DNA from: Limimaricola sp. G21655-S1
GTDB lineage: Bacteria > Pseudomonadota > Alphaproteobacteria > Rhodobacterales > Rhodobacteraceae
Reading direction: 5' to 3'
Assembly (NCBI RefSeq): GCF_027213785.1
Contig: NZ_JAPWGO010000004.1
Location: 1 to 64,000, forward strand
Length of the DNA stretch: 64,000 nucleotides
The position numbers and the translations under genes were made by a program. Of the stretch, positions 1,402 to 24,984 are shown piece by piece. How positions within the stretch are numbered: position 1 is the first letter of the stretch; the number at the start of each line of letters is the position of its first letter. Below the pieces are notes generated by a model that made no database searches, was not told the DNA's origin, and saw nothing but the letters and a program-made list of their open reading frames with translations.

Positions 1402-1921
1402 TCGATCGGGGTCGGTTCGCGGGGCTGGCCGAAACCGGCAAGGCCCGGTCGGGCTAGGATCGCCAAGTCGCATCGCCGCTGGCGCTCCTCTACTCTAGGC
1501 GCGCCTTTGCCTCCGGATCGGCCAGCAGTCGGTAGGAGAGGTGGTATCAAAATGTTGCGGACGTAGGTCGCGGGCTCGCGGTTGGCCGCCTCCTGTATCG
1601 CGATCTCGACATACTCGAACCATGCAACCGCCTTTGGCCCATTTCCGTAGCCCGGCGGGGCGCCCCCTGCGCGCTGATCGGTCCAGCCTACGGCTCCGGG
1701 AGCCGAGGCTTCATGCAGGCGAACCGGCCTTCGGCAGAAACCCGAAAGCTCGAAATCACCGCGGAACTGGAAGTCGAAATGCCTGAAGATCGAGCAGGAG
1801 CGTCCCGAGACGACGCAGATTGCTCAATCTCCGGGCGATTTCTCGTGGCTGCTCTGGTCGAGCGCCTCGTTTCGCTCTTTCCGCTCCACTTGGGCCATCG
1901 AAGTCGGGCTACTCTCGTCCC
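1402..1921. other. Intergenic region, 520 bp, no recognised gene
   Basis: No open frame here gives a recognisable protein. A short plus-strand frame at 1713-1925 has no family signature and no good ribosome site. A 6-bp hairpin (CGGCTC, loop CGG, GAGCCG) lies at 1691-1705. The promoter of the ATP-grasp operon should lie in the right-hand part, but no clear -35/-10 pair was picked out. Confidence 0.5.
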
Positions 1922-3346
1922 ATGAGCAAGAGCAGCAGTTTTGACGAGATGTGGGGGCACGAGACCGTGCTCCGGGATCCGTACGTACCGATTGACGAGT
2001 GGTTGCAGCAGGAGGATGCCGGGCGGTTGCGCCGCAAGGCGCGAGACGCGGAGGATCTGTTCCGCCTCACCGGTATCACCTTCAACGTTTATGGTGCCCG
2101 GGACGCGGCCGAGAGGCTGATCCCCTTCGATATCGTTCCCCGGGTCATCGCGGGGCGCGAATGGGACCGGCTGTCGCGGGGCATCGAGCAGCGGGTGCGC
2201 GCGATCAACGCCTTCTTGCACGACATCTATCACCGGCAGGAAATCATCCGCGCCGGGCGGGTGCCGATCGAGGCGATCGAGCGCAACGCCGCCTTCCTGC
2301 CGCAGATGATCGGGGTCGACCCGCCCGGCGGCGTCTACACCCATATCGTCGGCACCGATCTGGTGCGCACCGGCGAGGACGAGTTCTACGTGCTCGAGGA
2401 CAACGCCCGCACGCCCTCGGGGGTGAGCTACATGCTCGAGAACCGCGAGACCATGCTGCACATGTTCCCCGAATTGTTCATGAAGACCCGGGTGCGGCCG
2501 GTCTCATCCTACCCGGCGATGCTGCACCGCTCGCTCTGCGCCTGCGCGCCGAGTTCGAGCAGTGGCCGGCCGGTGGTGGGGGTGATGACGCCGGGCAGCT
2601 TCAACTCGGCCTATTACGAGCATAGCTTCCTCGCCGACAAGATGGGGGTCGAGCTGGTCGAGGGGCAGGACCTGCGTGTCGTCGACGGCCGGGTGGCCAT
2701 GCGGACCACCCAGGGCTACCAGCCGATCGACGTGCTCTACCGGCGTGTCGATGACGACTGGATCGATCCGCTCAACTTCAATCCGGACAGCGCGCTCGGC
2801 GTGCCGGGCATCATGGATGTCTATCGCGCCGGCCGGATCACCTTGGCCAACGCCCCCGGCACCGGCATCGCGGACGACAAGGCGATCTATTCCTACATGC
2901 CGGAAATCGTCGAGTTCTATACCGGCGAGAAGGCGCTTCTGAAGAACGTGCCGACTCGCCGCTGTGCCGAGCCCGAGGCGCTGTCCTACGTGCTCGACAA
3001 CCTGTCCGAGCTGGTGGTCAAGGAGGTGCACGGGTCCGGCGGCTACGGCATGCTGATCGGCCCGACCGCCTCCAAGAAGGAGCTTTCGGCGTTCCGCGAC
3101 AAGCTCAAGGCGCGACCCGGCAATTACATCGCGCAACCGACGCTGTCGCTCTCGACCGTGCCGATCTTTACCCGCGCTGGCCTCGCGCCGCGCCATGTCG
3201 ACCTGCGCCCCTTCGTGCTGGTTTCGCCCGACGGCGTGTCGATCACGCCGGGCGGGCTGACCCGCGTGGCGCTCAAGAAGGGGTCGCTGGTGGTCAATTC
3301 GAGCCAGGGCGGCGGCACCAAGGACACTTGGGTGCTCGAACAATGA
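1922..3346 (+). CDS. Circularly permuted ATP-grasp type 2 protein
   Basis: A 474-residue protein of the DUF404/DUF407 circularly permuted ATP-grasp family, predicted to join a carboxylate to an amine (peptide-like bond) using ATP. Family-typical stretches include EDNARTPSGVSYMLENR, GVMTPGSFNSAYYEHSFLA, VVKEVHGSGGYGMLIGP (nucleotide-binding, near residue 360) and the C-terminal VNSSQGGGTKDTWVLE. The frame extends upstream to 1820, but the ATG at 1922 gives the family's usual N-terminus and is preferred. It is the first gene of a tight operon and its stop overlaps the alpha-E gene (ATGA). The substrate is unknown. The same four-gene grouping is known in many bacteria and is thought to make and process a peptide-type compound or tag. 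Confidence 0.9.
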   Translation: MSKSSSFDEMWGHETVLRDPYVPIDEWLQQEDAGRLRRKARDAEDLFRLTGITFNVYGARDAAERLIPFDIVPRVIAGREWDRLSRGIEQRVRAINAFLHDIYHRQEIIRAGRVPIEAIERNAAFLPQMIGVDPPGGVYTHIVGTDLVRTGEDEFYVLEDNARTPSGVSYMLENRETMLHMFPELFMKTRVRPVSSYPAMLHRSLCACAPSSSSGRPVVGVMTPGSFNSAYYEHSFLADKMGVELVEGQDLRVVDGRVAMRTTQGYQPIDVLYRRVDDDWIDPLNFNPDSALGVPGIMDVYRAGRITLANAPGTGIADDKAIYSYMPEIVEFYTGEKALLKNVPTRRCAEPEALSYVLDNLSELVVKEVHGSGGYGMLIGPTASKKELSAFRDKLKARPGNYIAQPTLSLSTVPIFTRAGLAPRHVDLRPFVLVSPDGVSITPGGLTRVALKKGSLVVNSSQGGGTKDTWVLEQ

Positions 3347-4287
3347 CGACGCTGGGCAAGACCGCAGGCGGGCTCTACTGGATGTCCCGGCATCTGGAGC
3401 GTTCGGAGAACACGGCCCGGATGATCGAGGTGGGCCAGCGCATCGCGCTCACCCGGTCGTCGGATGATGACGAATGGGGCAGCATCCTGCAGGCGGCGGC
3501 GACACATGCCGGCTATGTCGCCAAGCATGGCGAGGTGACGCGCGACCTTGCGCTGGACTGGATGCTGCGTGACCCGGACAACCCGTCCTCGGTGCTGTCG
3601 GTGGTCAAGGCCGCGCGCGACAATGCCCGCGTCGTGCGCACCGCGCTCACCCGCGAGGTCTGGGAGGCGGTGAACGAGGCTTGGATGACGCTTTGCGCCG
3701 CGATGCGTCGCAAGGTGCATGACCGCGACCTGCAGGATGTGCTGGCACTGATCCGACAGCGCGCCGCCTTCGTGCGCGGCGCCATACATGGCACGATGCT
3801 GCGCAACGACATCTATGATTTCTGCCGGCTGGGGATGTTCAACGAACGCGCGGACTGCACTGCGCGCATCCTCGACGTGAAGTACTTCGTGTTGCTGCCA
3901 TCCGCGACGGCGGTGGGCTCGCGGCTCGATGACGTGCAATGGGAGACGATCCTGCGCAGCGTCTCGGGCGTGGGCGCCTTCCAGATGCGCTACGGCCAGC
4001 AACTGCGCCCGCGCGAGATCGCGGAGTTCATCATCCATGACCGTGCCATGCCGCGCAGCCTCGCCTTCTGCGCCCACAAGCTCGAGGAAAACCTCGGTTA
4101 CCTTGCGATGGATTACGGCACGCGCCTGCCGTCGCACGAGATTGCTGAAAAGCTGAACCAGAGGCTGCTCGGGCGGTCGATCGACACGATCTTCGAAAAC
4201 GGGCTGCACGAGTTCCTGATGGAAGTACAGCACTGCCTTGCGCATCTGAGCCAGCAGATCGAGATCGATTACAGGTTCTACCGATGA
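3343..4287 (+). CDS. Alpha-E domain protein
   Basis: A 314-residue, mostly helical protein of the alpha-E family (DUF403), starting GLYWMSRHLERSENTARMIEVG, which is the family's hallmark N-terminus. No enzymatic motif is visible. The family is nearly always encoded beside a circularly permuted ATP-grasp gene and a transglutaminase-like gene and is thought to act as their partner or scaffold. The ATG at 3343 overlaps the upstream stop by four bases, so translational coupling is likely; a GTG 15 bases earlier in the same frame is less likely. Cytoplasmic, with no signal peptide or membrane segment seen. Confidence 0.9.
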   Translation: MTTLGKTAGGLYWMSRHLERSENTARMIEVGQRIALTRSSDDDEWGSILQAAATHAGYVAKHGEVTRDLALDWMLRDPDNPSSVLSVVKAARDNARVVRTALTREVWEAVNEAWMTLCAAMRRKVHDRDLQDVLALIRQRAAFVRGAIHGTMLRNDIYDFCRLGMFNERADCTARILDVKYFVLLPSATAVGSRLDDVQWETILRSVSGVGAFQMRYGQQLRPREIAEFIIHDRAMPRSLAFCAHKLEENLGYLAMDYGTRLPSHEIAEKLNQRLLGRSIDTIFENGLHEFLMEVQHCLAHLSQQIEIDYRFYR

Positions 4288-4315
4288 CCCCCCATGCCGT
4301 CGCAGGAGCGCACCC

Positions 4316-5131
4316 ATGCGTCTGAGCATTTCGCACCGCACCACCTACAGCTTCGACGCGCCGGTCGATTACGCGCTGCAGCAGCTGCGGCTGACGCCCA
4401 AACCGGGCGGTGCGCAGCGCGTGCTGCGCTGGAGCAATACCGTCAGCGATGGTCAGACAGAGTTGAGCTTCGAGGATCAGCACGCCAACAAGGTCGAGCT
4501 CGTCTCGGTTACTCCGGGTGCACGAGAGATCAGCGTGCTGTCGGAGGGCGAACTGGAAGTCGAGGACCGGGCAGGGGTGCACGGCCCGCATGCAGGCTAC
4601 ATGCCGCTCTGGCTGTTCAAGCGGTCCACGTCTCTGACACGGCCCGGCGCACGCTGCCGCAAGCTGGTGTCGGGGCTGCGGGCCGGCAACGCGCCGCTGG
4701 AACGGCTGCACACCCTGTCCTCGGCAGTGGCCGAGACGGTGCAATACCGAACCGGAAGCTCGAACGTGGCGACCACCGCCGAGGACGCGCTCGAGGCCGG
4801 GGCCGGGGTCTGCCAGGATCACGCGCATGTATTCATCACCTGTGCGCGCCTCATGGGGGTCCCGGCGCGCTATGTCTCTGGTTACCTGATGATGGAGGGG
4901 CAGGTTTCGCAGGATGCGACGCATGCCTGGGCCGAGGCGCATGTGCCCGATCTCGGCTGGGTCGGTTTCGATGTCTCGAACGCGATCTCCCCGGATGCGC
5001 GTTACGTGCGCGTGGCGACGGGGCTGGACTACACCGAGGCAGCGCCGGTAAATGGCTTTCGCTTCGGCACCGCCCGCGAGGAACTCTCGGTCGCGATCGA
5101 GGTGCGTCAGGCTGAAACGGACTCGCAATGA
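4316..5131 (+). CDS. Transglutaminase-like cysteine protease family protein
   Basis: A 271-residue protein with a bacterial transglutaminase N-terminal domain (residues 1-80, starting MRLSISHRTTYSFDAPV) and a transglutaminase-like core. The catalytic triad is visible: Cys in GAGVCQDHAHVF, His in DATHAWAEAHV, Asp in GWVGFDVSN. Members usually act as peptidases or amide-bond exchangers rather than true cross-linking enzymes. AGGAG lies just before the ATG at 4316. The gene follows the alpha-E gene by 28 bases and overlaps the Anbu gene by four. The context suggests it processes the product of the ATP-grasp enzyme; that role is inferred. Confidence 0.9.
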   Translation: MRLSISHRTTYSFDAPVDYALQQLRLTPKPGGAQRVLRWSNTVSDGQTELSFEDQHANKVELVSVTPGAREISVLSEGELEVEDRAGVHGPHAGYMPLWLFKRSTSLTRPGARCRKLVSGLRAGNAPLERLHTLSSAVAETVQYRTGSSNVATTAEDALEAGAGVCQDHAHVFITCARLMGVPARYVSGYLMMEGQVSQDATHAWAEAHVPDLGWVGFDVSNAISPDARYVRVATGLDYTEAAPVNGFRFGTAREELSVAIEVRQAETDSQ

Positions 5132-5859
5132 CCTACTGTGTCGCCCTCAGGCTCGATCGGGGCCTGGTCTTCATGTCGGACACCCGCACCAATGCCGGGG
5201 TCGACAACATCTCGAGCTGCCGCAAGATGTTCAGCTGGTCCGACGGGGAGTCCTCGATCACCCTGCTGACGGCCGGCAACCTCGCCACCACCCAGGCGGT
5301 GGTCAGCCTGATCGAGGAGCGGCTGAAATCCCCGGGCGAGCGCAGCCCCTCGATCCTCGGCCAGCCCTCTATGTTCGTGGTGGCCCGGATGGTGGGCGAC
5401 CTGCTCAAGGAGGAGATCGCGCGCGCAGGCGCCGGGCAGATGAACGCGGATGCCGGCACCTTCGGTGCGACCCTGATCCTTGGCGGCCAGGTGCGCGGCA
5501 GCGCGCCGCGGCTGTTCCTGATCTACCCGGAGGGCAACTTCATCGAGGCGGGCGACGACATGCCTTGGTTCCAGAGCGGCGAGACCAAGTATGGCCGCCC
5601 GATATTGGTGCGTGCCTTCGACCCTGCGATGAGTTTTGCCGCGGCGGTCAAGCTCCTGATGGTCAGCTACGATTCGACCATCAAGGCGAACCTCTCGGTC
5701 GGGCTGCCGCTCGATCTTCAGATCTACGAGACGGACAGCCTCCAGCCCGGCAAGACGCTGCGGATCGAGGCGGACGACCCGCAATACCACGCAATCTCGG
5801 AAGGCTGGAGCGAGGCGCTCCGCGCGGCGTTCGAGCAGCTGCCCGACGTCGAACTTTGA
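5128..5859 (+). CDS. Anbu proteasome-type protease
   Basis: A 243-residue protein of the Anbu family (predicted proteasome-type protease, COG3484), a relative of 20S proteasome beta subunits and HslV. It begins MTYCVALRLDRGLVFMSDTR, placing Thr2 as the N-terminal nucleophile after Met removal; SDTRTNAGVDN and the lysine in SSCRKMFSW fit the active-site region. Anbu proteins assemble into large open ring or helical multimers; their substrate is unknown. It is the last gene of the operon, and its start overlaps the transglutaminase stop (ATGA). Linkage to the ATP-grasp/alpha-E/transglutaminase set matches the usual Anbu neighbourhood. No ATPase unfoldase is encoded nearby. Confidence 0.9.
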   Translation: MTYCVALRLDRGLVFMSDTRTNAGVDNISSCRKMFSWSDGESSITLLTAGNLATTQAVVSLIEERLKSPGERSPSILGQPSMFVVARMVGDLLKEEIARAGAGQMNADAGTFGATLILGGQVRGSAPRLFLIYPEGNFIEAGDDMPWFQSGETKYGRPILVRAFDPAMSFAAAVKLLMVSYDSTIKANLSVGLPLDLQIYETDSLQPGKTLRIEADDPQYHAISEGWSEALRAAFEQLPDVEL

Positions 5860-5968: not shown

Positions 5969-7261
5969 TCAGATCAGAAAATCGTCGCGATCGATCGCGC
6001 CCGCATCGATCCCGAGAAGCGTGATCTGCGAGTTGCCATAGCTGATCACGGCATCGTCGCCCTGGTTCTCGATGGACAGATCCTCGAACTCCAGAGACGT
6101 CCGGGTGAAGTCGAGCAGGTCCGACCCATCCTCGAAATCGGTGATGATATCGTCGCCATCCCTCTGGCTGCGGAACGCGAAGATGTCCGCCCCGTCGCCG
6201 CCGGTCAGCACGTCGTTGTGCCGCCCGCCGTTCAGAATGTCGGCGCCATCACCACCGTCGAGCGTATCGCGTCCCAAGTTGCCGAGAAGGCGATCGTCGC
6301 CCGCGCCGCCATTTAGCGTGTCACGCTGCTGGTTGCCGATGAGAATATCGGCGCCGGCCTTGCCGTTCAGCGTGTCGTTACCCTTGCCGCCGGCAAGAAC
6401 GTCCGCACCCGCGCCACCGGCCAGAAGGTCGTTCCCGGTACCGCCATCCAGCCGGTCATCGCCTGCAAAGCCGCGCAGAACGTCGTTGTCGGCCCCGCCA
6501 TCGAGCACGTCGTTGCCCTTGAAGCCCTTCACGACATCGTCGCCGGCCCCGGCATTGAAGACGTCATCAGAGGCGCTCAGCCCGAATTTGCCGCTGGCCG
6601 AGGCGCGCTGCCCGGCAAGCAGATCGAGGGCCTGTTCGAGATCGATCTCCATGATCTCGCCGGCTGCGACCGGCAGGATACCGACATAGCCATCCTGTTC
6701 GCCGTTGATCTCGCCGTCGGTGCCTTCGCCATAGCCGCCATTAACGTTTTGGCCATGCAGCACGATCTCGCGCAGCATCAGCGGCATCAGGTCCTCCATG
6801 TCATACTGGTTGCCGGTGACCGGGCTCTTCAGATTGTCCATGTCGGTCAGGTCGAAGCTCTGGATATAGGAGAGCTGGCCCTTTGAATCGGCCATCGGGC
6901 TCATACCATCGGCACCGGTCAGCGACAGCAGGACATCGCCATAGGCCGGTACCCCTTCGAGAACTTCGACGAAGCCGTCGCCGTCGGCATCGTCCGGCAG
7001 CGTCGGGGTCCGCGAATTGGCCGGGTTGCCTTCGTCATCGAACACGCCGTGGATGTGTTGGGCATGGGCCATATCGGGCGTCAGGTTCTCGGCCAGGATC
7101 GCCACGTTGATATAGGGCTTATCCTCGGCTTGGCCGAGCGAAACGATGGCGTTGCCATAGACGCCGGAGTTGTTCAGCGCCGTCAGGTCGACGGCCCAAG
7201 TTCCTTCGGAACCGCGCAGGAACGTTTCAAAGGATCCGTAGGAACTATCAAGATGAGCCAC
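5969..7261 (-). CDS. CHRD-like domain RTX calcium-binding protein
   Basis: A 430-residue protein in two parts. Residues 1-200 resemble a CHRD-type beta domain, with HAQHIHGVFDDEGNPA and later VLHGQNVNGGYG. Residues ~225-375 are about fifteen calcium-binding nonapeptides such as GGADNDVLRGFAGDDRLDG, followed by a C-terminal DIFAFRSQRDGDDIITDFEDG block typical of RTX proteins exported by type I systems without a cleaved signal. The start is GTG at 7261, supported by GGAGGAG just upstream. It would be extracellular and calcium-dependent; its function is unknown. It is transcribed alone, convergent with the Anbu operon and divergent from the ebo cluster. Confidence 0.85.
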   Translation of the reverse strand: MAHLDSSYGSFETFLRGSEGTWAVDLTALNNSGVYGNAIVSLGQAEDKPYINVAILAENLTPDMAHAQHIHGVFDDEGNPANSRTPTLPDDADGDGFVEVLEGVPAYGDVLLSLTGADGMSPMADSKGQLSYIQSFDLTDMDNLKSPVTGNQYDMEDLMPLMLREIVLHGQNVNGGYGEGTDGEINGEQDGYVGILPVAAGEIMEIDLEQALDLLAGQRASASGKFGLSASDDVFNAGAGDDVVKGFKGNDVLDGGADNDVLRGFAGDDRLDGGTGNDLLAGGAGADVLAGGKGNDTLNGKAGADILIGNQQRDTLNGGAGDDRLLGNLGRDTLDGGDGADILNGGRHNDVLTGGDGADIFAFRSQRDGDDIITDFEDGSDLLDFTRTSLEFEDLSIENQGDDAVISYGNSQITLLGIDAGAIDRDDFLI

Positions 7262-7683: not shown

Positions 7684-8955
7684 GTGGCCTCGTTGGATAT
7701 CTGTGTGCAGGGGCTGCGTGATGGCGTCCTGCCGCGCCTCGACGGCGCGACCCCGGTGAGGGCCCTGACAGAACGGGCGGCAGAGGTGAGCGACCAGGTG
7801 CACTGGCAACGGTTCTCGGTCCCCTTCGAATACCCGGTGGTCTTCGCCCGCGACATCTTCAACCCCGAGAACCGCATCCTTGCCAATGCCATCGGCCATG
7901 CGGAGCCCGACAAGACCCATCGGTGCCTCGTCTTCGTCGATGGCGGTGTCGTCGCGGCGCAGCCCATGATCACCGCCCGCATCGCGCAATGGTTCGCGCG
8001 TACCAGCGGCGTGAGCCTCGCCGGGGATATTGTCATCGTTCCGGGAGGCGAAGCGATCAAGAGCGATGGTACGCATGTCGAGGCGGTGCAGCGGGCTGTT
8101 TATCGGCATGGCATCGATCGGCATTCCTGCGTGGTCGCCATCGGCGGCGGCGCGATGCTCGATGCGGTCGGGCTTGGCGCGGCGGTGGCCCATCGCGGCG
8201 TCAGGCTGATCCGCGTTCCCACCACGGTCCTGTCGCAAAACGACTCCGGGGTGGGAGTGAAGAACGCGGTCAATCTCGATGGCTACAAGAACTTCACCGG
8301 CACTTTCGCCCCGCCATGGGCCGTCGTGAATGATTTCGACTTCCTCCAGCATCTGCCTCGGCGCGAGCGTATCGCCGGTATCGCCGAGGCAGTGAAAGTC
8401 GCGCTGATCCGCGACGGGGGTTTCTTCGCCTGGCTCGAGGCGAATGCCGACCGTCTGAGGGCATTCGAGCGCGACGCCGAGGAGTGGATGGTCCGGCGCT
8501 GCGCGGAGCTGCACATGGCGCAGATCGCCCATGGCGGCGATCCGTTCGAGAGGGGGTCGGCCCGCCCGCTCGATTTCGGTCACTGGGCCGCGCACAAGCT
8601 CGAAACGCTGAGCGGGCATACGGTCAATCACGGCGAAGCCGTGGCCATCGGCATCGCCCTCGATACCCGCTATTCGGTGTTGGCCGGGCTGCTGCCCGCC
8701 GGCGCCGAGGAAAGGGTCGCGGCGCTTCTCGAGCGGTTGGGCTTTGCCTTGTTTCATGCCGGGTTGGGTCTACCCGGAGCGGATGGCCAGCCGGCCCTGC
8801 TGGCCGGCCTCGACGAGTTCCGCCAGCATCTGGGGGGCGAACTGACCGTGACGCTGCTCGAAGGGCTGGGTTCCGGCATCGAACTGCACCAAATCGACCC
8901 GGATCTCGTGCGGCAGGCGCTCGATTGGCTGGCGCGCCGTGAGGCGCAGGCATGA
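7684..8955 (+). CDS. eboD: EboD, sugar-phosphate cyclase (3-dehydroquinate synthase-like)
   Basis: A 423-residue member of the sugar-phosphate cyclase superfamily, related to 3-dehydroquinate synthase and 2-epi-5-epi-valiolone synthase. These enzymes cyclise a phosphorylated sugar using NAD and a metal. NAD- and metal-site stretches are visible: VVAIGGGAMLDAVGLGAAVAHRG, RVPTTVLSQNDSGVGVKNAVN and VNHGEAVAIGIALDTRY. The GTG at 7684 is chosen because GGAGG at 7671-7675 is well spaced and the family motif QRFSVPFEYPVVF then lies near the N-terminus; a longer frame from 7468 is possible. The stop overlaps eboE (ATGA). The aroB-like sequence plus the ebo neighbours make this eboD, not the housekeeping shikimate enzyme. 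Substrate unknown. Confidence 0.88.
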   Translation: MASLDICVQGLRDGVLPRLDGATPVRALTERAAEVSDQVHWQRFSVPFEYPVVFARDIFNPENRILANAIGHAEPDKTHRCLVFVDGGVVAAQPMITARIAQWFARTSGVSLAGDIVIVPGGEAIKSDGTHVEAVQRAVYRHGIDRHSCVVAIGGGAMLDAVGLGAAVAHRGVRLIRVPTTVLSQNDSGVGVKNAVNLDGYKNFTGTFAPPWAVVNDFDFLQHLPRRERIAGIAEAVKVALIRDGGFFAWLEANADRLRAFERDAEEWMVRRCAELHMAQIAHGGDPFERGSARPLDFGHWAAHKLETLSGHTVNHGEAVAIGIALDTRYSVLAGLLPAGAEERVAALLERLGFALFHAGLGLPGADGQPALLAGLDEFRQHLGGELTVTLLEGLGSGIELHQIDPDLVRQALDWLARREAQA

Positions 8956-10124
8956 AGCAGGAGCTGACCTACTGTCTCAATATCCATCCGACCGAGACCT
9001 GGGAGGAGGTGCGCGCGGCCTTGCTCGGACCCGTTCTGCAGGTGCGCGACGGGATCGCGGGGAATGGGGATTTCCCGGTGGGCCTACGTTTTTCCGGGCA
9101 GGCGTTGCACGACCTGCGTGCCACCGAGGCACGCGAAGACCTCAAGACCATCCTCAAACGCGAGCGGTTGCGGGCCGTCACCGTGAACGGCTTTCCCTAT
9201 GGCCGTTTTCACGGCACCCGCGTGAAGGAAGACGTCTATCGTCCGGATTGGCGCGAAGAGGAGCGGTTGGCCTATACCTGCGAGCTGGCCGATCTCATGG
9301 CCGAGATCGCGCCTATCGAGCCGCTGGTGAGCCTGAGCACCGTGCCGGGTTGTCTGCGCGCACTGTCGGTGGGGCAGGAGGGCGCGGTCGCGGACAACTA
9401 CCTGCGCGCAGTGGCGCATATGGTGGATCTGGAACGGCGGACCGGTGTCCGGGTGGCGCTGGCGATCGAACCGGAACCGGCCTGCATGTTCGAGACGATC
9501 GAGGAAACCGCAGCCTTCTTCCGCGACCACCTGTTGTCGGACTCGGCGGCCGAGCGGCTGGCGGAAATGACCGATCTCGGGCGCGATGCGGCACGCGCGG
9601 CGCTGCCCCGCTATATCGGGCTGTGCTACGACGTCTGCCACGCCGCCGTGGAGTTCGAGGATCCGGCCGGAAGCCTCGAGATGCTGCGGCAGGCTGGCGT
9701 GCCGGTGCACAAGCTGCAGCTCAGCGCGGCGCTTCGGGTGGCCGAGGTAACCCCGCAGGCGCGTGAGGCCCTGTCGAGTTTCGCCGAGCCCACCTACCTG
9801 CACCAGGTGGTCAGCCGTCGTGGCGACGGCCCGCTTGAGCGTTTGACGGATCTGCCTGAGGCCCTGGCGCGCGGCGCCGAGGCGGATGGCGAGGAATGGC
9901 GCGTGCATTTCCACGTCCCGATCTTTCTCAAGGATCTCGGGGCCTTCGAGAGCACGCGCGATTTCCTCGATGAGATCCTGCGACTGCATCGCCAGCAGCC
10001 GATCTCGCCGCATCTGGAGGTCGAGACCTATACTTGGAACGTGCTGCCCGAGCGGTTGCGAAGCGAGCGCATGGAGGAGGCTGTGCTGCGCGAGCTGCGC
10101 TGGGTATCGGAGCGGCTGGCATGA
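8952..10124 (+). CDS. eboE: EboE, TIM-barrel metabolite traffic protein
   Basis: A 390-residue protein matching the EboE family, a xylose-isomerase-like TIM barrel. It starts MKQELTYCLNIHPTETW, as typical. Likely metal ligands are in VALAIEPEPACMFE, GLCYDVCHAAVEFED, WRVHFHVPIF and HLEVETYTW, which follow the Glu/Asp-His/His/Glu pattern of these isomerases. The reaction is not known; in cyanobacteria the ebo genes are needed to move a scytonemin precursor out of the cytoplasm. The start overlaps the eboD stop and its own stop overlaps eboC (both ATGA), so eboD-eboE-eboC form a coupled unit. Confidence 0.88.
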   Translation: MKQELTYCLNIHPTETWEEVRAALLGPVLQVRDGIAGNGDFPVGLRFSGQALHDLRATEAREDLKTILKRERLRAVTVNGFPYGRFHGTRVKEDVYRPDWREEERLAYTCELADLMAEIAPIEPLVSLSTVPGCLRALSVGQEGAVADNYLRAVAHMVDLERRTGVRVALAIEPEPACMFETIEETAAFFRDHLLSDSAAERLAEMTDLGRDAARAALPRYIGLCYDVCHAAVEFEDPAGSLEMLRQAGVPVHKLQLSAALRVAEVTPQAREALSSFAEPTYLHQVVSRRGDGPLERLTDLPEALARGAEADGEEWRVHFHVPIFLKDLGAFESTRDFLDEILRLHRQQPISPHLEVETYTWNVLPERLRSERMEEAVLRELRWVSERLA

Positions 10125-10972
10125 CGCGCGTCGCGACCATCCTGCGGCTCGGCCGGGTTTCGAACCTGCCGACCGTCTGGACGAACGCGCTTGCCGCCGC
10201 GGTGTTGGCTGCCGGGGCGACGCTGCCCGGTAGGACCGTTCTGGCCGCGGCGGCGATCCTCAGCCTGTTCTATATCGGCGGCATGTGGCTGAACGACGCC
10301 TTCGATGCCGAGATCGATGCAAGGGAACGCAGCACACGGCCCATCCCCGCGGGCGAGATCGGGCGGGTGGCGGTCTTTGCCGTCGGAGGCGCGCTGCTGG
10401 CAATTGGGATCGTCGGCGGCTTTGGCTTCGGCCCCGCTGCAGGAGCGGCGGCGTTGGCACTCGCGGCGACGGTGCTGCTCTATGACTGGCTGCACAAGCG
10501 GACGGTGTCGAGCCCGGTCATCATGGGGGCGACGCGCTTCTTGTGCTATGTCTTCGCCGCCTTGGCGCTCGGGGCGCTGCCTTGGCTGGTGCTGGTCGCG
10601 GCGTTCGGTCTCTTTGCCTATGTGGTCGGCCTGACCTATGCGGCGAAGCAGGAGGCCTATGACAGGCTCGACCGGGCTTGGCCCCTGGCCGTGCTGGCAT
10701 TTCCACTGCTGGTGGCGCTGGTTCTGGCTTGGGGCAATGCGTTGGCGCTGGCGATCTGCCTCAGCCTCGCGGCGCTGATGGCTGTGGCGCTCCGCCGCCT
10801 GTTCCGCAGCGACAAGGGCGACGTGCCGAAGGCGGTCGTGACGCTGATCGCCGGCATGTCGCTCTATGATGCGGCGCTGCTGGCAGCGGTCGGCGCGCCG
10901 GGACTTGCGATCCTGGCAGTGGCGGGGTGCGGGCTGACCCTGCTGCTTCAAAGGGTCGTGCCCGGCACCTGA
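10121..10972 (+). CDS. eboC: EboC, UbiA-type prenyltransferase
   Basis: A 283-residue integral membrane prenyltransferase of the UbiA superfamily with about eight hydrophobic segments. The first Asp-rich motif is present as MWLNDAFDAEIDARERSTRPIPAG (NDxxDxxxD, magnesium-diphosphate binding); the second region reads YAAKQEAYDRLDRAWP. The enzyme would attach a prenyl chain to a small acceptor at the inner membrane. In the ebo cluster the acceptor is presumed to come from EboD, which is inference. The start at 10121 overlaps the eboE stop. The gene ends five bases from the convergent eboF, leaving no room for a separate terminator. Confidence 0.9.
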   Translation: MTRVATILRLGRVSNLPTVWTNALAAAVLAAGATLPGRTVLAAAAILSLFYIGGMWLNDAFDAEIDARERSTRPIPAGEIGRVAVFAVGGALLAIGIVGGFGFGPAAGAAALALAATVLLYDWLHKRTVSSPVIMGATRFLCYVFAALALGALPWLVLVAAFGLFAYVVGLTYAAKQEAYDRLDRAWPLAVLAFPLLVALVLAWGNALALAICLSLAALMAVALRRLFRSDKGDVPKAVVTLIAGMSLYDAALLAAVGAPGLAILAVAGCGLTLLLQRVVPGT

Positions 10973-10977
10973 GATCC

Positions 10978-12363
10978 TCAGTCGAAGACATGTCGCAGGA
11001 CCAGCGATTTGAAATCGGTGGCCGCGACCCGCCCATCGGGTAGCGCGCCCGGCTCCGAGGAAATCACCAGCGGCCCTTCATCGGGATTGTCCGTGATCCG
11101 TCCATGCGTGCCCTTCACGAGATGCGTGGCCGATGGCGAGATGATGTCCAGGAGCTGCCGGAAGCCCGCCTTGCGCTTTGCCAGCTTCATTGCCGCTGTG
11201 AGCCGGGGGTGGCGGATCTCGGGATCGACGAAGAGCTCGACCGGATCGTAGCCCGGTTTGCGATGGATATCGACGGTGCGGGCGAAATCTGGCGCCCTGT
11301 CCGGGTCGAGCCAGTAGTAATAGCTGAACCAGCGATCCGGCTTCGAGACCGCGACCAACTCACCCGAGCGGGGGTGGTCCAGCCCATGCGCGCGCTTGCC
11401 CTCGGCGTCCCAGATCTGCTCGACCCCGTCCAGGCCCTCGATCAATGCCCTCACCTCTCGAATGCGCGCGGCATCCTCTACATGAACATGGGCGATCTGG
11501 TGGTCGGCCATGGCGAAGGCGGTACTCGCGCCGCAATCGAGGGTCTCGCGGCCATGCTCCTCGCGGCGGACCGCAAGAAGGCCGGCCTCTCGCAGGGCGC
11601 GGTTGATATGGACCGCATCCGTGGCTTTCGTGATTCCGTATTCCGACACGACGATGATACGCCGCCCGGTCCGGTCGGCCTCCTCGATCAACTCGCCGCA
11701 CAGCGCGTCGACCTCGCGCAGATCGGCCCGAAGACGCGGGTGGTCCAGATCCGGGCCGAGCCGCTGCAGATTGTAGTCGAGATGCGGCAGATAGGTCAGG
11801 GTCAAGGTCGGGTCCCGGGTCTGCATCACGTGCAGCGTCGCCTTGGCAATCCACTCCGAAGAGCTGATGTCCGCCAGAGGGCCCCAGAACTTGAACAGGG
11901 GAAACGGCCCCAGCGCCGCATCCAGCTCGTCATGCAGTTCCGGGGGGAAGGCGTAGTGATCCGGTATCTTGCGGCCGTCCGCCGGATACATCGGCCGCGG
12001 TGTCGCCGACCAGTCGGCGCTGGAGTACATGTTGTACCACCAGAACATCTTGGCGCAGGTGAAATCAGGGTTCCTCTTGCGTCCAGCTTCCCAGACCTTC
12101 TCGCCTTCCACGAGATTGTTGGGCTGCCGCCAAAGCATGATTTCCCGCAGGTCGCGGAAGTACCAGCCATTCGCCACCACACCGTGATCGGACGGCATGA
12201 GCCCGGTGAGAAGCGTCGCCTGTGCCGTGCATGTGACTGCGGGCGTCACCGTGTCGAGCGGTCGCAAGGCGCCCCGCTCGGCCAGCTTCTTGAGGTGCGG
12301 CGTATCGCGTCCCACCAGATGCGGAGCGAGGCCGACAACGAGGATCACCAGCGTCTTTTTCAT
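10978..12363 (-). CDS. eboF: EboF-type phosphodiesterase / nucleotide pyrophosphatase
   Basis: A 461-residue protein of the alkaline-phosphatase superfamily, type I phosphodiesterase/nucleotide pyrophosphatase group. The likely nucleophile is a threonine in PAVTCTAQATLLTG (near residue 44). Metal-ligand regions are TYLPHLDYNLQRLGP, IVVSEYGITKATD and VKGTHGRITDN. In classical members the second motif reads SDHG; here it is SEYG, so one site differs. The N-terminus (MKKTLVILVVGLAPHLVG) is a beta strand with a metal site rather than a clear signal peptide. It lies within the ebo cluster but on the opposite strand, convergent with eboC and divergent from eboA across 82 bases. Confidence 0.82.
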   Translation of the reverse strand: MKKTLVILVVGLAPHLVGRDTPHLKKLAERGALRPLDTVTPAVTCTAQATLLTGLMPSDHGVVANGWYFRDLREIMLWRQPNNLVEGEKVWEAGRKRNPDFTCAKMFWWYNMYSSADWSATPRPMYPADGRKIPDHYAFPPELHDELDAALGPFPLFKFWGPLADISSSEWIAKATLHVMQTRDPTLTLTYLPHLDYNLQRLGPDLDHPRLRADLREVDALCGELIEEADRTGRRIIVVSEYGITKATDAVHINRALREAGLLAVRREEHGRETLDCGASTAFAMADHQIAHVHVEDAARIREVRALIEGLDGVEQIWDAEGKRAHGLDHPRSGELVAVSKPDRWFSYYYWLDPDRAPDFARTVDIHRKPGYDPVELFVDPEIRHPRLTAAMKLAKRKAGFRQLLDIISPSATHLVKGTHGRITDNPDEGPLVISSEPGALPDGRVAATDFKSLVLRHVFD

Positions 12364-12445
12364 GCGAGCACCATGCGGTGCCGGCTAAAACGTTGCAACA
12401 GTTCCGGCCTTCTATATCGTGAAAGGGTGGACTGGGAGGACGTTC

Positions 12446-13300
12446 ATGCCGACAGCGGATGCGGTCCTGAGGGACATCGTACTGGCACGCGCAGGAAGCG
12501 AAGCAGGCTGGGTCGAAGAGAACCTGGAAGCGCTTCGAAGGGGGGCGCCCGAGCGCGACCTGCACATTTTCCTGGGGCTGGCGCCCCGACGGCTGGGCAA
12601 GGCCGATCTGGTACCGACCGCCGCGGAGTGCGAGGCCGCCGAGGCAGCCCGGCCGGGCTGGCGGATCGATGGCTGGAGCCTCGACGGAGCCGCTCGCGTA
12701 CTCGCGCTATTGGTGCATGCGGGGCAGCGACCATTTGCCGACCGGTTCAAGGACCTGCGCCGGACTTCGGACGTGGCGGAGATGATCGCGCTCTATCGCG
12801 GCCTGCCGCTTTATCCGGAACCGGAAACGCTGCATTTCGAAGTGGGCGAAGGGCTGCGCTCGAACCTCAGGCCGGTCTTCGAGGCGATCGCCCATGACAA
12901 TCCCTTTCCCCGAGATCATTTCGACGAGCACCGTTGGAACCACATGATCCTCAAGGCGCTCTTCGTCGGCAGCCGGCTGGCACCGATTATCGGTCTGGAC
13001 GAACGCGCCAATCCCGAGCTAGCCCGAATCCTGCGCGAATACGCCCATGAACGCTGGGCGGCCGGCCGGACCGTCACGCCGGAGCTGTGGCGCTGCGTCG
13101 GGCCCTATGCACAGGACGAGGCGGCGCTTTCCGATCTGGAGCGTGCGCTCTCCGAGGGCGGGGCAGGTGCGTGCGGCGCCGCGCTGGCGCTCGCGGCCTC
13201 GCCCGCGCCCGAGGCGCGGCAGCTGCTGGAGGGCAGGGCCGAGGCCGAGGAGATCGCGGCCGGGCGCCTGGACTGGAACCGGCTGGAGGAGGCCGCCTGA
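12446..13300 (+). CDS. eboA: EboA domain protein
   Basis: A 284-residue protein of the EboA family, whose biochemical function is unknown. Family-typical stretches are the RGLPLYPEPETLHFEVGEG block, RSNLRPVFEAIAHDNPFPRDHFDEHRWN and MILKALFVGSRLAPIIGLDERAN. The C-terminus is alanine-rich. No signal peptide or membrane segment is seen. The ATG at 12446 follows GGAGG at 12435-12439; an in-frame ATG at 12419 lacks such a site. The gene overlaps eboB at TGATG/ATGT, so the two are probably translated together. Confidence 0.85.
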   Translation: MPTADAVLRDIVLARAGSEAGWVEENLEALRRGAPERDLHIFLGLAPRRLGKADLVPTAAECEAAEAARPGWRIDGWSLDGAARVLALLVHAGQRPFADRFKDLRRTSDVAEMIALYRGLPLYPEPETLHFEVGEGLRSNLRPVFEAIAHDNPFPRDHFDEHRWNHMILKALFVGSRLAPIIGLDERANPELARILREYAHERWAAGRTVTPELWRCVGPYAQDEAALSDLERALSEGGAGACGAALALAASPAPEARQLLEGRAEAEEIAAGRLDWNRLEEAA

Positions 13301-14220
13301 TGTATATCGACCCGCATGCCCATATGATCAGCCGCACCACCGATGATTACGAGGCGATGGCGGCGGCCGGCATCGTGGCGCTGATCGAGCCCGCCTTCTG
13401 GACCGGCCAGCCTCGTACCTTCGTCGGCACCTATGTCGACTACCTGTCGTCGATCGTCGGTTGGGAGCGGTTTCGCGCCGGGCAGTTCGGCATCCGCCAC
13501 TACTGCACCATCGGGCTCAATTCCAAGGAGGCCAACAACGAGGAGTTGGCGGAAGGCGTGATGGACTGGCTGCCGCGCTTCGCGCTCAAGGAAGGCGTCG
13601 TGGCCATCGGCGAGATCGGCTATGACGAGCAGACCCCGCTCGAGGACAAGTACTTCCGGGCGCAGCTCGAACTGGCCAAGGAATTGCACCTGCCCGTGAT
13701 GGTGCACACGCCGCATCGCGACAAGAAGCGCGGCACCTCCCGCTCGATGGACGTCATCGAGGAGCATGGCCTCGATCCCTCGATGGTGGTGATCGACCAC
13801 AACAACGAGGAGACCGTGGCCGAAACCCTGCAGCGCGGCTACTGGGCCGGCTTCTCGATCTATCCCTCGACCAAGATGGGCAACCGTCGGATGGTGGAGT
13901 TGCTGAAGCAATATGGCGGCGAGCGGATCATCGTCGACAGCGCCTGCGATTGGGGGATCTCCGACCCGCTCGGCGTACCGAAGACCGCGCAGCTGGCATT
14001 GCAAAGCGGTATCCCCGAAGAGACCGTGCGCAAGGTCTGCTACGGCAACGCGCTCGCTGCCTATGGGCAGAGCGGGCAGATGCACGAGGATGACTGGCTC
14101 GACCCGCCGCAGATCGACCAGCGCACCCTGTTCAACGACAACTCGATTCTCAGAGGCGGGCGCGAGCCGGTTATCGGGGATACGGCCGGGACGCGACGGG
14201 GCGGCCTGATCATCGAGTAA
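13300..14220 (+). CDS. eboB: EboB, TatD-family metal-dependent hydrolase
   Basis: A 306-residue TatD-like amidohydrolase. The metal-binding sequence order is clear: MYIDPHAHMISRT (HxH), VAIGEIGYDEQTP (Glu), MVHTPHRDKKRG (His), VVIDHNNEETV (His) and IVDSACDWGISDP (Asp). TatD relatives are nucleases or amidohydrolases; the substrate of the Ebo version is unknown. The start overlaps the eboA stop, which fixes the ATG at 13300 although the frame stays open further upstream. It ends 33 bases from the convergent DsbA-type gene. All six ebo families are present in this window. Confidence 0.9.
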   Translation: MYIDPHAHMISRTTDDYEAMAAAGIVALIEPAFWTGQPRTFVGTYVDYLSSIVGWERFRAGQFGIRHYCTIGLNSKEANNEELAEGVMDWLPRFALKEGVVAIGEIGYDEQTPLEDKYFRAQLELAKELHLPVMVHTPHRDKKRGTSRSMDVIEEHGLDPSMVVIDHNNEETVAETLQRGYWAGFSIYPSTKMGNRRMVELLKQYGGERIIVDSACDWGISDPLGVPKTAQLALQSGIPEETVRKVCYGNALAAYGQSGQMHEDDWLDPPQIDQRTLFNDNSILRGGREPVIGDTAGTRRGGLIIE

Positions 14221-14252: not shown

Positions 14253-14900
14253 TCAGCCGCGCATTCCGGCCAGTTGCTCCAAGATGCGGGTATAGTTTTC
14301 GACCCCTTGGGCGCCGGTCACGAGATGGCGCCGGTCGAAGATCATTGCCGGCACGCCACGGATGCCTTGGCGCAGCCAATGCGTTTCCGCCGCGCGTACT
14401 TCGCCTGCGAAGCGCTGCTCATTCAGTACGGTGAGCACCTCCGTGCGATCGAGACCGATCTCCGCGGCGATATCAGCCAGAACGGTCCGATCGGAAAGAT
14501 CGCGCCGATGGGTGAAATGGGCCGCAAAAAGCGCCTGCTTCAGATCATGCATGCGACCTTGGCTTTCGGCCCAGTGCAGCAGCTGGTGAACATCGAACGT
14601 GTTGTGCATCCGCATATCCTCGGACCAGCGGAACTCGAAACCGAGTTCGGCGCCAAGATCGGCCATGCGGATACGACTCTCTTCCGATTGCTCCGGCGTG
14701 CTGCCGTATTTCTCCATGATGTGCTCGCGCATGTTCTGGCCCTCGGCCGCCATGTCGGGATTGAGCTCGAACGGGTGCCAGTGAATCTCATGCGCCGTAC
14801 CGGTCGCCTCGAGGGCACGTGCCAATTGGCGGTAGCCGATGACGCACCAAGGGCAGACCACGTCGGAGACGATATCGATACGGAGCGGTTGGGTGGGCAT
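14253..14900 (-). CDS. DsbA-family oxidoreductase, FrnE-like
   Basis: A 215-residue thioredoxin-fold protein of the DsbA/FrnE group. The redox motif CPWC lies near residue 17 (DVVCPWCVIGYRQLARAL), followed by an all-alpha insertion and the cis-proline strand IRGVPAMIFDRRHLVTGAQ. FrnE-like proteins are usually cytoplasmic dithiol oxidoreductases; no signal peptide is seen here. The ATG at 14900 follows AAGGA at a good spacing and removes an 18-residue upstream extension that does not fit the family. It is transcribed toward eboB. A link to the ebo genes is possible but not shown by sequence. Confidence 0.87.
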   Translation of the reverse strand: MPTQPLRIDIVSDVVCPWCVIGYRQLARALEATGTAHEIHWHPFELNPDMAAEGQNMREHIMEKYGSTPEQSEESRIRMADLGAELGFEFRWSEDMRMHNTFDVHQLLHWAESQGRMHDLKQALFAAHFTHRRDLSDRTVLADIAAEIGLDRTEVLTVLNEQRFAGEVRAAETHWLRQGIRGVPAMIFDRRHLVTGAQGVENYTRILEQLAGMRG

Positions 14901-15303
14901 GTCAGATCCTTGATGGTGTAGCCAGCGATGGGCCGCGGAGAGCAAGCGGCGCATAGTCGGGGGGAATGGGTCGAAATCGGCAGTGCCGACGCTGTCACTT
15001 GCGCAGATGGCAACCTCACGCCCCGCTGCAAGAGCGTAGTTGAGCGATCACTCGATATTGAGGCTTGCCGAGCCTCTGTAGAGAAGCTCGCTTGCCTGCC
15101 TCGATGACACCGCAACGTTTCCCTCCAGTGGTGATCGCGTCGCGCATGGGCATTTCCGCGACAAACGCTGGCAGGGCTCATCGTTGTGCAGGATGCGTCA
15201 ACTTTCCGCCCCATTGTTCATTGCATGTGAACCGTCAAGTCGACCGCAATCCGGTCGAGCCAATTCGCAATCATCCTGCCCTGATCCGAGGAGCGTTGGT
15301 CAC
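14901..15303. other. Divergent intergenic region, 403 bp
   Basis: No protein or RNA gene is recognised. The region should hold the promoters of the DsbA-like gene and the GGDEF-EAL gene. It contains a 6-bp hairpin at 15060-15076 (GAGGCT / AGCCTC) and a stronger inverted repeat nearer the GGDEF-EAL start, listed separately. Confidence 0.5.
15240..15258. repeat. Inverted repeat upstream of GGDEF-EAL gene
   Basis: TCGACCG, spacer CAATC, CGGTCGA: a perfect 7-bp inverted repeat ending 45 bases before the ATG at 15304. It could be an operator or a leader hairpin; no regulator is assigned. Confidence 0.4.
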
Positions 15304-20250: not shown

Positions 20251-20487
20251 GTTCCACCTGCAGCAGGTAGAGCAGGACCGAGGGAACAGGTCTCCACCGA
20301 AAGTCATGCAGGGTCTGGCTGGGCAGATCGTTTTCGGAAGGACCCCCGACCCGGACTTGCCCGCGCATAAGGCGACGCTTCACCGGAATGCCTGAATTCT
20401 AGGCGCTGCGATTTCTCGCTCCCCGCCATGCGGCCTTGTTGTGTGATGGACCTTGTCCCCCGACTGCGCGGCGTGGATGCCCGGCTC
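20251..20487. other. Region upstream of nasT
   Basis: About 237 bases between the csp terminator and nasT, expected to carry the nasT promoter. No clear sigma-54 or other promoter was identified by eye. An in-frame ATG at 20428 would lengthen nasT by 20 residues but gives a non-family N-terminus. Confidence 0.4.
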
Positions 20488-21072
20488 ATGAGCGTCAGGC
20501 TGAGCATCGTGGTGGTCGAGCCGGATCAGGAGCGGGCGCGCCTGATCGTCGAGAGCCTGCGCGCCGCGGGCGATCACGAGATCCTTGTCATCCGTGAAAC
20601 GACCGGGCTGGCCCGACGGATCGGTCAGGCGGATCCCGATATCGTGCTGATCGACATCGCCGACCCCTCGCGCGACACGCTCGAAGAGCTGGCGCTGGCC
20701 TCCGGCCCGCTGGATCGGCCGGTCGCGATGTTCGTCGATCGAAGCGAGCAGGGGCTGACCCGCGCGGCGATCGAGGCGGGGGTCTCGGCCTATGTGGTCG
20801 ACGGGCTGCGGGCCGAGCGCCTCAAGCCGGTGCTGGACGCGGCGATGGCCCGGTTTCAGATGTTCCGCCAGATGCGCACTGAACTGGCCGCGACGCGCCG
20901 CGCACTCGAGGAGCGCAAGGTGATCGACCGCGCCAAGGGCCTCCTGATGAAGGCGCGGGGGATCGACGAGGGAGAAGCCTACGCGCTGCTGCGCCGCACC
21001 GCGATGGATCAGGGACGCCGTGTCGCCGATGTCGCCGAGGCGCTGGTGACCGCGGCGGGGCTGCTGTCATGA
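20488..21072 (+). CDS. nasT: NasT, ANTAR-domain antitermination regulator
   Basis: A 194-residue response-regulator-like protein with a receiver fold (residues 1-120, MSVRLSIVVVEPDQERARLIVE) and a C-terminal ANTAR RNA-binding domain (VIDRAKGLLMKARGIDEGEAYALLRRTAMDQGRRVADVAEAL). NasT binds two small hairpins in the leader of nitrate genes and prevents termination; NasS holds it inactive when nitrate is absent. It overlaps nasS (ATGA). Start 20488 is chosen for the family-like N-terminus, although the ribosome site is weak. A matching leader lies at 22321-22416. Confidence 0.93.
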   Translation: MSVRLSIVVVEPDQERARLIVESLRAAGDHEILVIRETTGLARRIGQADPDIVLIDIADPSRDTLEELALASGPLDRPVAMFVDRSEQGLTRAAIEAGVSAYVVDGLRAERLKPVLDAAMARFQMFRQMRTELAATRRALEERKVIDRAKGLLMKARGIDEGEAYALLRRTAMDQGRRVADVAEALVTAAGLLS

Positions 21073-22199: not shown

Positions 22200-22320
22200 C
22201 CAAAGTTTAGTCAATCCCGCGACAGCCCCGTTTCCGTCCTGCCGCAGTGCGGCAATGCCCTTGCGGCAACACGGGCGGAGCGGTCAAATCGGGATGTAGG
22301 GCAGGCAATGGCGCCTGACC

Positions 22321-22355
22321 GACCGACTTCTCCCAGCGACTGGGCGATCTGGAGC
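22321..22355 (+). promoter_or_regulatory. Candidate ANTAR target, first hairpin (P1)
   Basis: CCCAG (22332-22336), CGA, CTGGG (22340-22344) form a 5-bp hairpin; drawn with a wider loop it presents AGCGAC, with A at position 1 and G at position 4, as ANTAR proteins require. Seven bases separate it from the second hairpin. The fold is less certain than that of P2. Confidence 0.5.
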
Positions 22356-22416: not shown

Positions 22417-22458
22417 CGCCCGGACCTCCCGCCGGGCCCCGAAACCGGAGCGACGCGC

Positions 22459-23826: not shown

Positions 23827-23831
23827 CCCGC

Positions 23832-24979: not shown

Positions 24980-24984
24980 TCGCC

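What the first reader, a model, noticed from the sequence alone, without database searches (positions are those of the whole stretch)
7684..14220. Complete six-gene ebo cluster with eboF inverted inside it
Sequence shows an eboD-type sugar-phosphate cyclase, EboE TIM barrel, UbiA prenyltransferase, type I phosphodiesterase, EboA and TatD-like EboB in 6.5 kb. Known: ebo genes are scattered across cyanobacteria, bacteroidetes and some algal plastids, and were linked to export of a scytonemin precursor, but the product of the pathway is unknown. Inference: a cyclitol-like product is prenylated by EboC and acted on by EboF. The inverted eboF, between two coupled gene groups, is an unusual order and may mean separate control.
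Basis: partly seen in the sequence, partly recalled or inferred. Interest (0 to 1): 0.75.

Follow-up and report, generated by a model that had tools for sequence, protein, structure and literature searches.

The report
Complete ebo cluster, eboF inverted
A marine bacterium carries a complete copy of a known but unexplained six-gene pathway, and comparing it with relatives suggests that the pathway builds a greasy, ring-shaped sugar-derived molecule that may work with oxidising enzymes outside the inner membrane.

Summary
In detail: six ebo genes lie at 7684-14220 in a Limimaricola genome, order D>E>C> <F A>B>, with a separate housekeeping aroB. The locus is a new member of a known kind. The layout is not unusual: 18 of 61 complete loci share it; 14 of the 15 such loci in the tree form one clade spanning Rhodobacterales and halophilic gammaproteobacteria. 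F is the only gene inverted alone (25 of 61).

Two comparative results were not seen in nine literature searches. (1) Of 51 plasmid-borne clusters found through EboB, 16 carry EboD, 32 carry myo-inositol-phosphate synthase instead, none both, 3 neither. Of 7 ebo genomes without EboD, 5 have that synthase; of 43 with EboD, 2. This supports a cyclitol head group. EboD also differs from DHQ synthase at two substrate-site residues in 65 of 65 sequences. (2) Nineteen of 44 proteobacterial ebo loci carry a glucose/sorbosone-type dehydrogenase beside a CxxCH protein, 10 inside the cluster. The window lacks it.

Best model: a prenylated cyclitol-type lipid serving periplasmic oxidation or export. The product remains unidentified.

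The parts
7684..8955 (+). eboD, sugar-phosphate cyclase superfamily (not AroB); start GTG
   Evidence: NF004852 551.5 bits (cut 333), aroB TIGR01357 205.6 (cut 305, not met); K250->H and N268->D in 65 of 65 EboD sequences
8952..10124 (+). eboE, xylose-isomerase-like TIM barrel
   Evidence: NF035939 421.4 bits (cut 250); AlphaFold2 model pLDDT 96.2; nearest PDB folds UlaE, Art22, IolI
10121..10972 (+). eboC, UbiA-superfamily prenyltransferase
   Evidence: PF01040 63.6 bits; NF035940 EboC cut-off not met (89.8 of 250); N, D, D, D of the Asp-rich motif in 64 of 64; only solved relative at E<=0.01 is DGGGP synthase 6m31, E 2.7e-4
10978..12363 (-). [quoted passage not shown] inverted
   Evidence: PF01663 216.8 bits
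12364..12445 (.). 82-bp divergent gap between eboF and eboA
   Evidence: sequence read; no promoter-like site there
12446..13300 (+). eboA, all-helical protein; ATG preceded by GGGAGGA (the ORF could also open at GTG 12419)
   Evidence: NF035938 157.5 bits (cut 50); model pLDDT 97.1, no PDB match at E<=0.001
13297..14220 (+). eboB, TatD-like metallo-hydrolase (TTG 13297 or ATG 13300)
   Evidence: PF01026 65.4 bits; HxH, E, H, H, D each present in at least 85 of 86 sequences
14253..14954 (-). DsbA/FrnE-like oxidoreductase next to eboB; link to ebo uncertain
   Evidence: PF01323 131.1 bits; 25-29% identical relatives lie in 5 cyanobacterial ebo loci and in L031

Best explanation
The locus is a complete ebo pathway of the six-gene, EboD-bearing type. 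EboD cyclises a sugar phosphate, probably sedoheptulose 7-phosphate, to a cyclitol (inferred from changed DHQ-synthase residues and from its replacement by inositol-phosphate synthase elsewhere). EboE, an isomerase/epimerase/dehydratase-type TIM barrel, and EboB, a metal-dependent hydrolase-type enzyme, reshape the ring or remove a group; EboC, a membrane prenyltransferase whose nearest solved relative is the archaeal ether-lipid enzyme, attaches a prenyl chain; EboF removes a phosphate group; EboA is a helical partner or scaffold. The result would be a membrane-anchored prenyl-cyclitol-type lipid. Its recurrent genomic partners in proteobacteria (glucose/sorbosone-type dehydrogenase plus c-type cytochrome) and the published shared phenotype of ebo and scyE mutants suggest that it serves a reaction at the outer face of the inner membrane. 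Shown here: gene identities, cyclase exchange, residue changes, partner genes, layout history. Inferred: every catalytic step, the order of steps and the product.
For: Family matches. Cyclase exchange: 51 plasmid ebo clusters, 16 EboD only, 32 inositol-phosphate synthase only, 0 both, 3 neither, in Actinomycetota, Gemmatimonadota and haloarchaea; the four such synthases tested have both Pfam domains over cut-off. In 50 ebo genomes: synthase in 5 of 7 without EboD, 2 of 43 with it; none in the own genome, G007, G008 or G015. EboD residues: K250->H 65/65, N268->D 65/65, K356->R/Q/S 65/65, R264->A/S in 60 and G/I/V in 5, while the own AroB has K, N, K, R (numbering and roles recalled). EboC's solved relative is DGGGP synthase. 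Partner genes: 19 of 44 proteobacterial loci.
Against: No product is known for any ebo cluster in the papers seen. A homologue of EboC (Ubi-297) farnesylates aromatic quinolines in vitro (PMC9235831, abstract and section 4 part 1); cyclitols were not shown there. NCBIfam labels the EboD family '3-dehydroquinate synthase'. An invariant Arg stands one position after the R264 column in EboD (R261 of alignment A4), so the R264 change may be a shift rather than a loss. Inositol-phosphate synthase keeps its phosphate (recalled) and EboD-type enzymes lose it (PMC5133447), so the two routes are not chemically identical. Descent limits the independence of the exchange counts (27 of 51 records are Streptomyces); 2 EboD-bearing genomes also have the synthase and 2 EboD-less MAGs have none. 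The dehydrogenase pair is absent from the 64-kb window, from the Salinicola and Halomonas stretches held, and scored weakly or not at all outside proteobacteria.
Confidence: 0.55

Rival explanations
1. Ebo makes a lipid carrier that moves small molecules across the inner membrane (model of Klicki et al. 2018): the prenylated head group binds the cargo non-covalently and leaves with a capsule-type exporter.
For: In Nostoc each of five ebo deletions keeps the scytonemin monomer in the cytoplasm, whereas in a scyE mutant it also reaches the periplasm (PMC6282210). ABC-ATPase-like ORFs recur in 9 loci (where L109's lies over annotated cydD/cydC). Compatible with a prenyl-cyclitol product.
Against: The ABC-like ORFs are only 25-38% alike outside their own locus, a very common family, with no one exporter type shared; the strongest recurrent partners are oxidoreductases and cytochromes.
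Confidence: 0.3
2. EboC prenylates an aromatic (quinoline-type) acceptor, and the cluster makes a prenylated aromatic metabolite rather than a cyclitol lipid.
For: Ubi-297, an EboC homologue from Maribacter, farnesylates 8-hydroxyquinoline-2-carboxylic acid in membrane preparations (PMC9235831).
Against: Exchange of EboD for inositol-phosphate synthase points to a cyclitol; the window EboC is distant from the EboC model (89.8 of 250 bits) and its one solved relative acts on a polyol phosphate (activity recalled).
Confidence: 0.12
3. The inverted eboF is under its own control and belongs functionally with periplasmic oxidation rather than with eboDEC.
For: F is the only gene inverted alone, in 25 of 61 loci; in L011 and L015 a dehydrogenase gene with a signal-like N-terminus lies 4 bp from eboF on the same strand, inside the cluster.
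Against: In 32 of 61 complete loci all genes run one way; no conserved motif was seen by eye in the eboF-eboA stretch of 13 loci; no promoter signal above chance.
Confidence: 0.25
4. EboD is an extra 3-dehydroquinate synthase and the cluster draws on the shikimate pathway.
For: NCBIfam name of NF004852; superfamily; most active-site residues kept.
Against: Separate AroB over its cut-off; K250->H and N268->D in 65 of 65 EboD; exchange with a cyclase that does not use DAHP.
Confidence: 0.04

Closest known systems
ebo operon (Yurchenko et al. 2016, PMC5133447)
   Same: All six genes eboA-F, physically clustered; a DECABF order and clusters with one reversed gene are described there
   Different: Order D>E>C> <F A>B>; EboC and EboA below the curated subfamily cut-offs; host is a Rhodobacterales bacterium
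Nostoc scytonemin-linked ebo cluster (Klicki et al. 2018, PMC6282210)
   Same: Same gene families; EboD of another Nostoc (L064) scores in the same NCBIfam family (616.1 bits)
   Different: No scytonemin-type gene seen among the 24 window ORFs scanned with Pfam (not searched for specifically); gene order differs
EDB cluster of Pseudomonas fluorescens NZI7 (known to me through PMC6282210)
   Different: Not compared by sequence here
SCO3242-type clusters of Streptomyces plasmids (L109, L112, L116)
   Same: EboA, EboB, EboE, EboF and a UbiA prenyltransferase in one run
   Different: Inositol-phosphate synthase and a further sugar-phosphate isomerase in place of EboD; SCO3242 prenyltransferase in place of EboC

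Membership tests
ebo cluster | EboE family protein (NF035939) | tested here: met
   421.4 bits, cut-off 250
ebo cluster | EboA (NF035938 domain; NF035937 subfamily) | tested here: inconclusive
   Domain cut-off met (157.5 of 50), subfamily cut-off not met (210.6 of 320)
ebo cluster | EboC equivalog (NF035940) | tested here: not met
   89.8 of 250; SCO3242 family 93.8 of 260, not met either. UbiA PF01040 met; Asp-rich motif as in 64 of 64 ebo-linked UbiA proteins. I file it as a divergent EboC by position, not by the model
ebo cluster | EboD lineage distinct from AroB | tested here: met
   NF004852 551.5 of 333, aroB 205.6 of 305; second, housekeeping aroB on C77 at 352.4 of 305. No tree of the whole superfamily was built here
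ebo cluster | EboB TatD-like and EboF type I phosphodiesterase | tested here: met
   65.4 of 27 and 216.8 of 23
ebo cluster | Six genes physically clustered | tested here: met
   6.5 kb, coordinates; same order in other genera
ebo cluster | Function in synthesis or export of a metabolite | not testable with these tools
   needs mutants and metabolite analysis
housekeeping 3-dehydroquinate synthase (AroB) | TIGR01357 cut-off and DAHP-site residues | tested here: not met
   205.6 of 305; K250->H, N268->D; R264 change possibly a one-position shift
inositol-phosphate-synthase type of ebo cluster | Inositol-phosphate synthase beside eboB, no EboD | tested here: not met
   EboD present; no synthase in the window, no PF07994 in the own genome

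The most novel reading that the evidence does not exclude
The Ebo product is an unrecognised membrane redox lipid: a cyclitol that is dehydrated to a quinol-like ring and prenylated, and that connects secreted oxidoreductases (glucose/sorbosone-type dehydrogenase plus cytochrome c in proteobacteria, PQQ sugar dehydrogenase in haloarchaea, ScyE in cyanobacteria) with the inner membrane. It would explain why ebo and scyE mutants stop at the same intermediate and why the head-group cyclase can be swapped.
Probability: 0.15. Interest if true: 0.9.

Novelty: new member of a known kind. Interest (0 to 1): 0.58.

Why it matters
The ebo pathway occurs in many bacterial phyla, in some algal plastids (PMC5133447) and, in a shortened form, in haloarchaea, yet its product is unknown. 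The cyclase exchange narrows the head group to a cyclitol and gives two genetic systems (EboD type, inositol type) whose extracts can be compared. The recurrent dehydrogenase/cytochrome partners give a second testable lead, a role in periplasmic oxidation, which the published transport model does not include.

Tried and rejected
Inverted eboF as an oddity: rejected, since 18 of 61 complete loci share the exact order. A shared operator between eboF and eboA: the stretch was read by eye in 13 loci (window, L110, L111 and ten others, some cut at 330 bases), nothing conserved. Promoters and terminators: no excess over shuffles (1 against 1.1; 1 against 4.0). A clean empty site: three ebo-less congeners keep the block left of the cluster (82-84% identity, window about 1920-5850), but in the 9-11 kb held beyond it nothing matches window 5850-64000 (one has a 71% match to RTX sequence of window 991-1400), so insertion or loss cannot be told apart. 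Plasmid location: no RepC (PF03428) found in the own genome; G007's lies on contig C34, not on C23; undecided. EboA fold: 434 Foldseek matches at E <= 10, none at E <= 0.001; the 50 shown include many helical-repeat proteins, too weak to support the published TPR suggestion. EboF: no solved relative at E <= 1e-5. Residues of EEVS (4p53) against EboD could not be read because only the five best alignments are printed. Roles of the DHQ-synthase residues were sought in passages of PMC7144000 (Lys250, Arg264, Asn268 absent) and PMC4426668 without result, so they rest on recall. A superfamily tree with EEVS, DDGS and EVS was not built for lack of named sequences.

In some searches, 50 of the 79 genomes first asked for were used: all 20 whose held stretch lacked eboD plus 30 chosen for spread. 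G460 is counted as EboD-bearing because a 72.7-bit piece lies at a contig end. The expectation (0.81 of 43 loci) and its P value come from a list that held 21 of the 24 positive loci and loci that share descent, so the P value is not used; 22 of 74 non-cyanobacterial loci against roughly 1.4 expected at that rate is the fairer figure. Of these 22, 19 score above 200 bits, all proteobacterial; L050, L081 and L088 score 40-108 and were dropped; L092 and L113, found by blastp, do not reach the profile threshold. The 44 proteobacterial loci were counted by hand from record titles and handles; two of them (L034, L041) are from one MAG. The CxxCH test is loose: 17 of the 19 also fall into one of two cytochrome groups by blastp, whose representatives (L040, L038) and L045 are c-type cytochromes by Pfam. 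L010 and L014 are one genome: L010 was dropped from the tree and from the 74, but both stand in the 61. Of the other 60 complete loci, 4 are not in the 56-locus tree: L110, L111 and L117 were not in its input, and one lacked a full-length domain. Many matches were not listed, one of three in the own genome among them; the dehydrogenase profile finds none in the 64-kb window.
Full report
WHAT IS THERE. The window is the first 64 kb of contig C439 (251,896 bp) of genome G000. Its congener G007 has an ebo-bearing contig of 559,732 bp, the same length as that of Limimaricola soesokkakensis CECT 8367, so the host is taken to be a Limimaricola. Six genes fill 7684-14220: eboD, eboE, eboC forward with 4-bp overlaps, eboF reversed and convergent with eboC, then eboA and eboB forward and overlapping. 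Family scores confirm all six, with two reservations: the EboC and EboA subfamily cut-offs are not reached. A separate aroB on contig C77 passes the aroB cut-off (352.4 of 305) where EboD fails it (205.6).

THE ORDER IS A LINEAGE TRAIT. EboE is rare among relatives: 4 of 61 genomes including the own, and 3 of 398 genomes drawn from the phylum including the own. Of 89 loci read for gene order, 61 hold all six genes. Twenty-six are A>B>C>D>E>F>, 18 are D>E>C> <F A>B> (17 distinct genomes), the rest are scattered. The only gene inverted alone is F (25 of 61); in 32 nothing is inverted. On a tree of 56 loci from four proteins (1507 columns) the 14 D>E>C> <F A>B> loci other than L045 form one clade (FastTree support 1.0); in it Salinicola and Halomonas group with most alphaproteobacterial members to the exclusion of L009 (0.99). 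The arrangement therefore predates the movement of the cassette between alpha- and gammaproteobacteria. It also sits on plasmids of Roseivivax and Salipiger. Yurchenko et al. 2016 (sections 3.2-3.4 and 3.7 read) already describe clusters with one reversed gene.

THE CYCLASE CAN BE SWAPPED. In three Streptomyces plasmid clusters read in full the order is inositol-3-phosphate synthase, SCO3242 prenyltransferase, sugar-phosphate isomerase, EboA, EboB, EboE, EboF, with no EboD. Haloarchaeal plasmids carry a shorter form: EboB, UbiA, EboF, sugar-phosphate isomerases and, in Halocatena and Natronococcus, the same synthase; Haladaptatus gave no synthase match on its plasmid. Gemmatirosa has EboE, EboB, EboF, prenyltransferase and synthase. 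Over all 51 plasmid records found with EboB: EboD within 15 kb in 16, synthase in 32, both in 0, neither in 3. Two of the three exceptions show only B, E and F in the stretch held. None of the 86 loci WIN and L009-L093 holds the synthase. Genome-wide, 5 of 7 ebo genomes without EboD have the synthase (two Lewinella relatives, three planctomycetes; the two without are MAGs) against 2 of 43 with EboD. In these genomes the synthase is not in the stretch held around eboB. Descent is shared within the groups, so the number of independent exchanges is small, perhaps five. Four ebo-linked synthases tested have both Pfam domains of the family.

EBOD IS UNLIKE DHQ SYNTHASE AT TWO SITES. Aligned to the own AroB, all 65 EboD sequences have H for K250 and D for N268; K356 is R, Q or S; R264 is A, S, G, I or V, though an invariant Arg stands one place later, so this one may be a shift. 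D146, K152, N162, E194, K197, H271, H275 and H287 are kept in 65 of 65. Residue numbers are those of the A. nidulans enzyme and, like the roles, come from recall.

OTHER PARTS. EboE's model (pLDDT 96.2) is nearest to L-xylulose-5-phosphate 3-epimerase UlaE, isomerase Art22 and IolI (E 1.7e-7 to 1.6e-6, query TM 0.47-0.49). EboA's model (pLDDT 97.1) is helical with no significant match. EboB keeps its metal-site residues in at least 85 of 86 sequences and EboC its Asp-rich motif in 64 of 64. EboC's only solved relative at E <= 0.01 is digeranylgeranylglyceryl phosphate synthase.

PARTNER GENES. Clustering of neighbour ORFs and Pfam revealed a PF07995 glucose/sorbosone-type dehydrogenase with a c-type cytochrome, plus VTT and NUDIX proteins. 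A profile of the dehydrogenase finds it in 22 of 74 non-cyanobacterial loci, 19 of them strongly, all proteobacterial (19 of 44), and in 0 of 11 cyanobacterial loci; each of the 19 has a CxxCH ORF within 600 bp of a copy; in 10 a copy lies inside the ebo cluster; many have an evident N-terminal signal sequence (by eye). The proteobacterial genomes surveyed have 2-7 PF07995 copies each, so about 1.4 of 74 would be expected by chance (rate). In L011 and L015 the dehydrogenase gene is 4 bp from eboF on its strand. The window has none in 64 kb; Salinicola and Halomonas have none in the stretches held. ABC-ATPase-like ORFs also recur, in 9 loci, with low mutual similarity. In Klicki et al. 2018 (results part 1, discussion part 1 and the 'Roles' section read) ebo and scyE mutants are called biochemically identical, both stopping at the scytonemin monomer, though the monomer reaches the periplasm only in the scyE mutant, which favours transport over oxidation.

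IN PRINT? Nine searches of the held library (four of them listed only part of their matches: 11, 41, 105, 112) showed no paper describing inositol-phosphate synthase or the dehydrogenase/cytochrome pair in ebo clusters. The word 'inositol' does not occur in the main text of PMC5133447, PMC9235831 or PMC6282210, nor 'cytochrome' in PMC6282210. Subscription papers and preprints were not searched.

VERDICT. A true, complete, otherwise ordinary member of a known but unsolved pathway. Its value lies in the comparison it opened: a cyclitol head group is now better supported, and a link to periplasmic oxidation is a new lead.

Noticed in passing
window 1820-5859: Circularly permuted ATP-grasp, alpha-E, transglutaminase-like and proteasome-like peptidase genes in a row; kept in three ebo-less congeners.
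   Followed up: partly
window 19-1401 and 5969-7261: Two RTX-repeat calcium-binding proteins flank the conserved block left of the ebo cluster.
   Followed up: no
window 14253-14954: DsbA/FrnE-like gene beside eboB; distant relatives (25-29% identity) sit in cyanobacterial ebo loci L059, L062, L066, L067, L084 and in L031. The family is common, so the link may be chance.
   Followed up: partly
window 20428-32106: ANTAR regulator, two NMT1-like proteins, an ABC ATPase and a molybdopterin oxidoreductase: probably a nitrate-assimilation cluster.
   Followed up: no
window 32695-35748 and 37414-40758: Two AcrB-type efflux pump genes.
   Followed up: no
window 7684-8955, L012 8292-9440, L064 14400-15536: NCBIfam NF004852, named 3-dehydroquinate synthase (PRK06203), scores these three EboD proteins above cut-off but not the own AroB (199 of 333), so its name is probably wrong.
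   Followed up: yes
NZ_CP014598.1 and NZ_CP014597.1: Salipiger sp. CCB-MM3 carries ebo genes on two different plasmids.
   Followed up: no
L042 1230-2723 and 7258-8613: Two dehydrogenase genes, each with a CxxCH ORF nearby, at two places inside one ebo cluster.
   Followed up: no
L122, L123: Streptomyces plasmid clusters with only eboB, eboE, eboF in the stretch held: reduced copies.
   Followed up: no
L111 13418-15562: A large PQQ-dependent alcohol-dehydrogenase-type protein lies close to the ebo cluster on a Salipiger plasmid.
   Followed up: no
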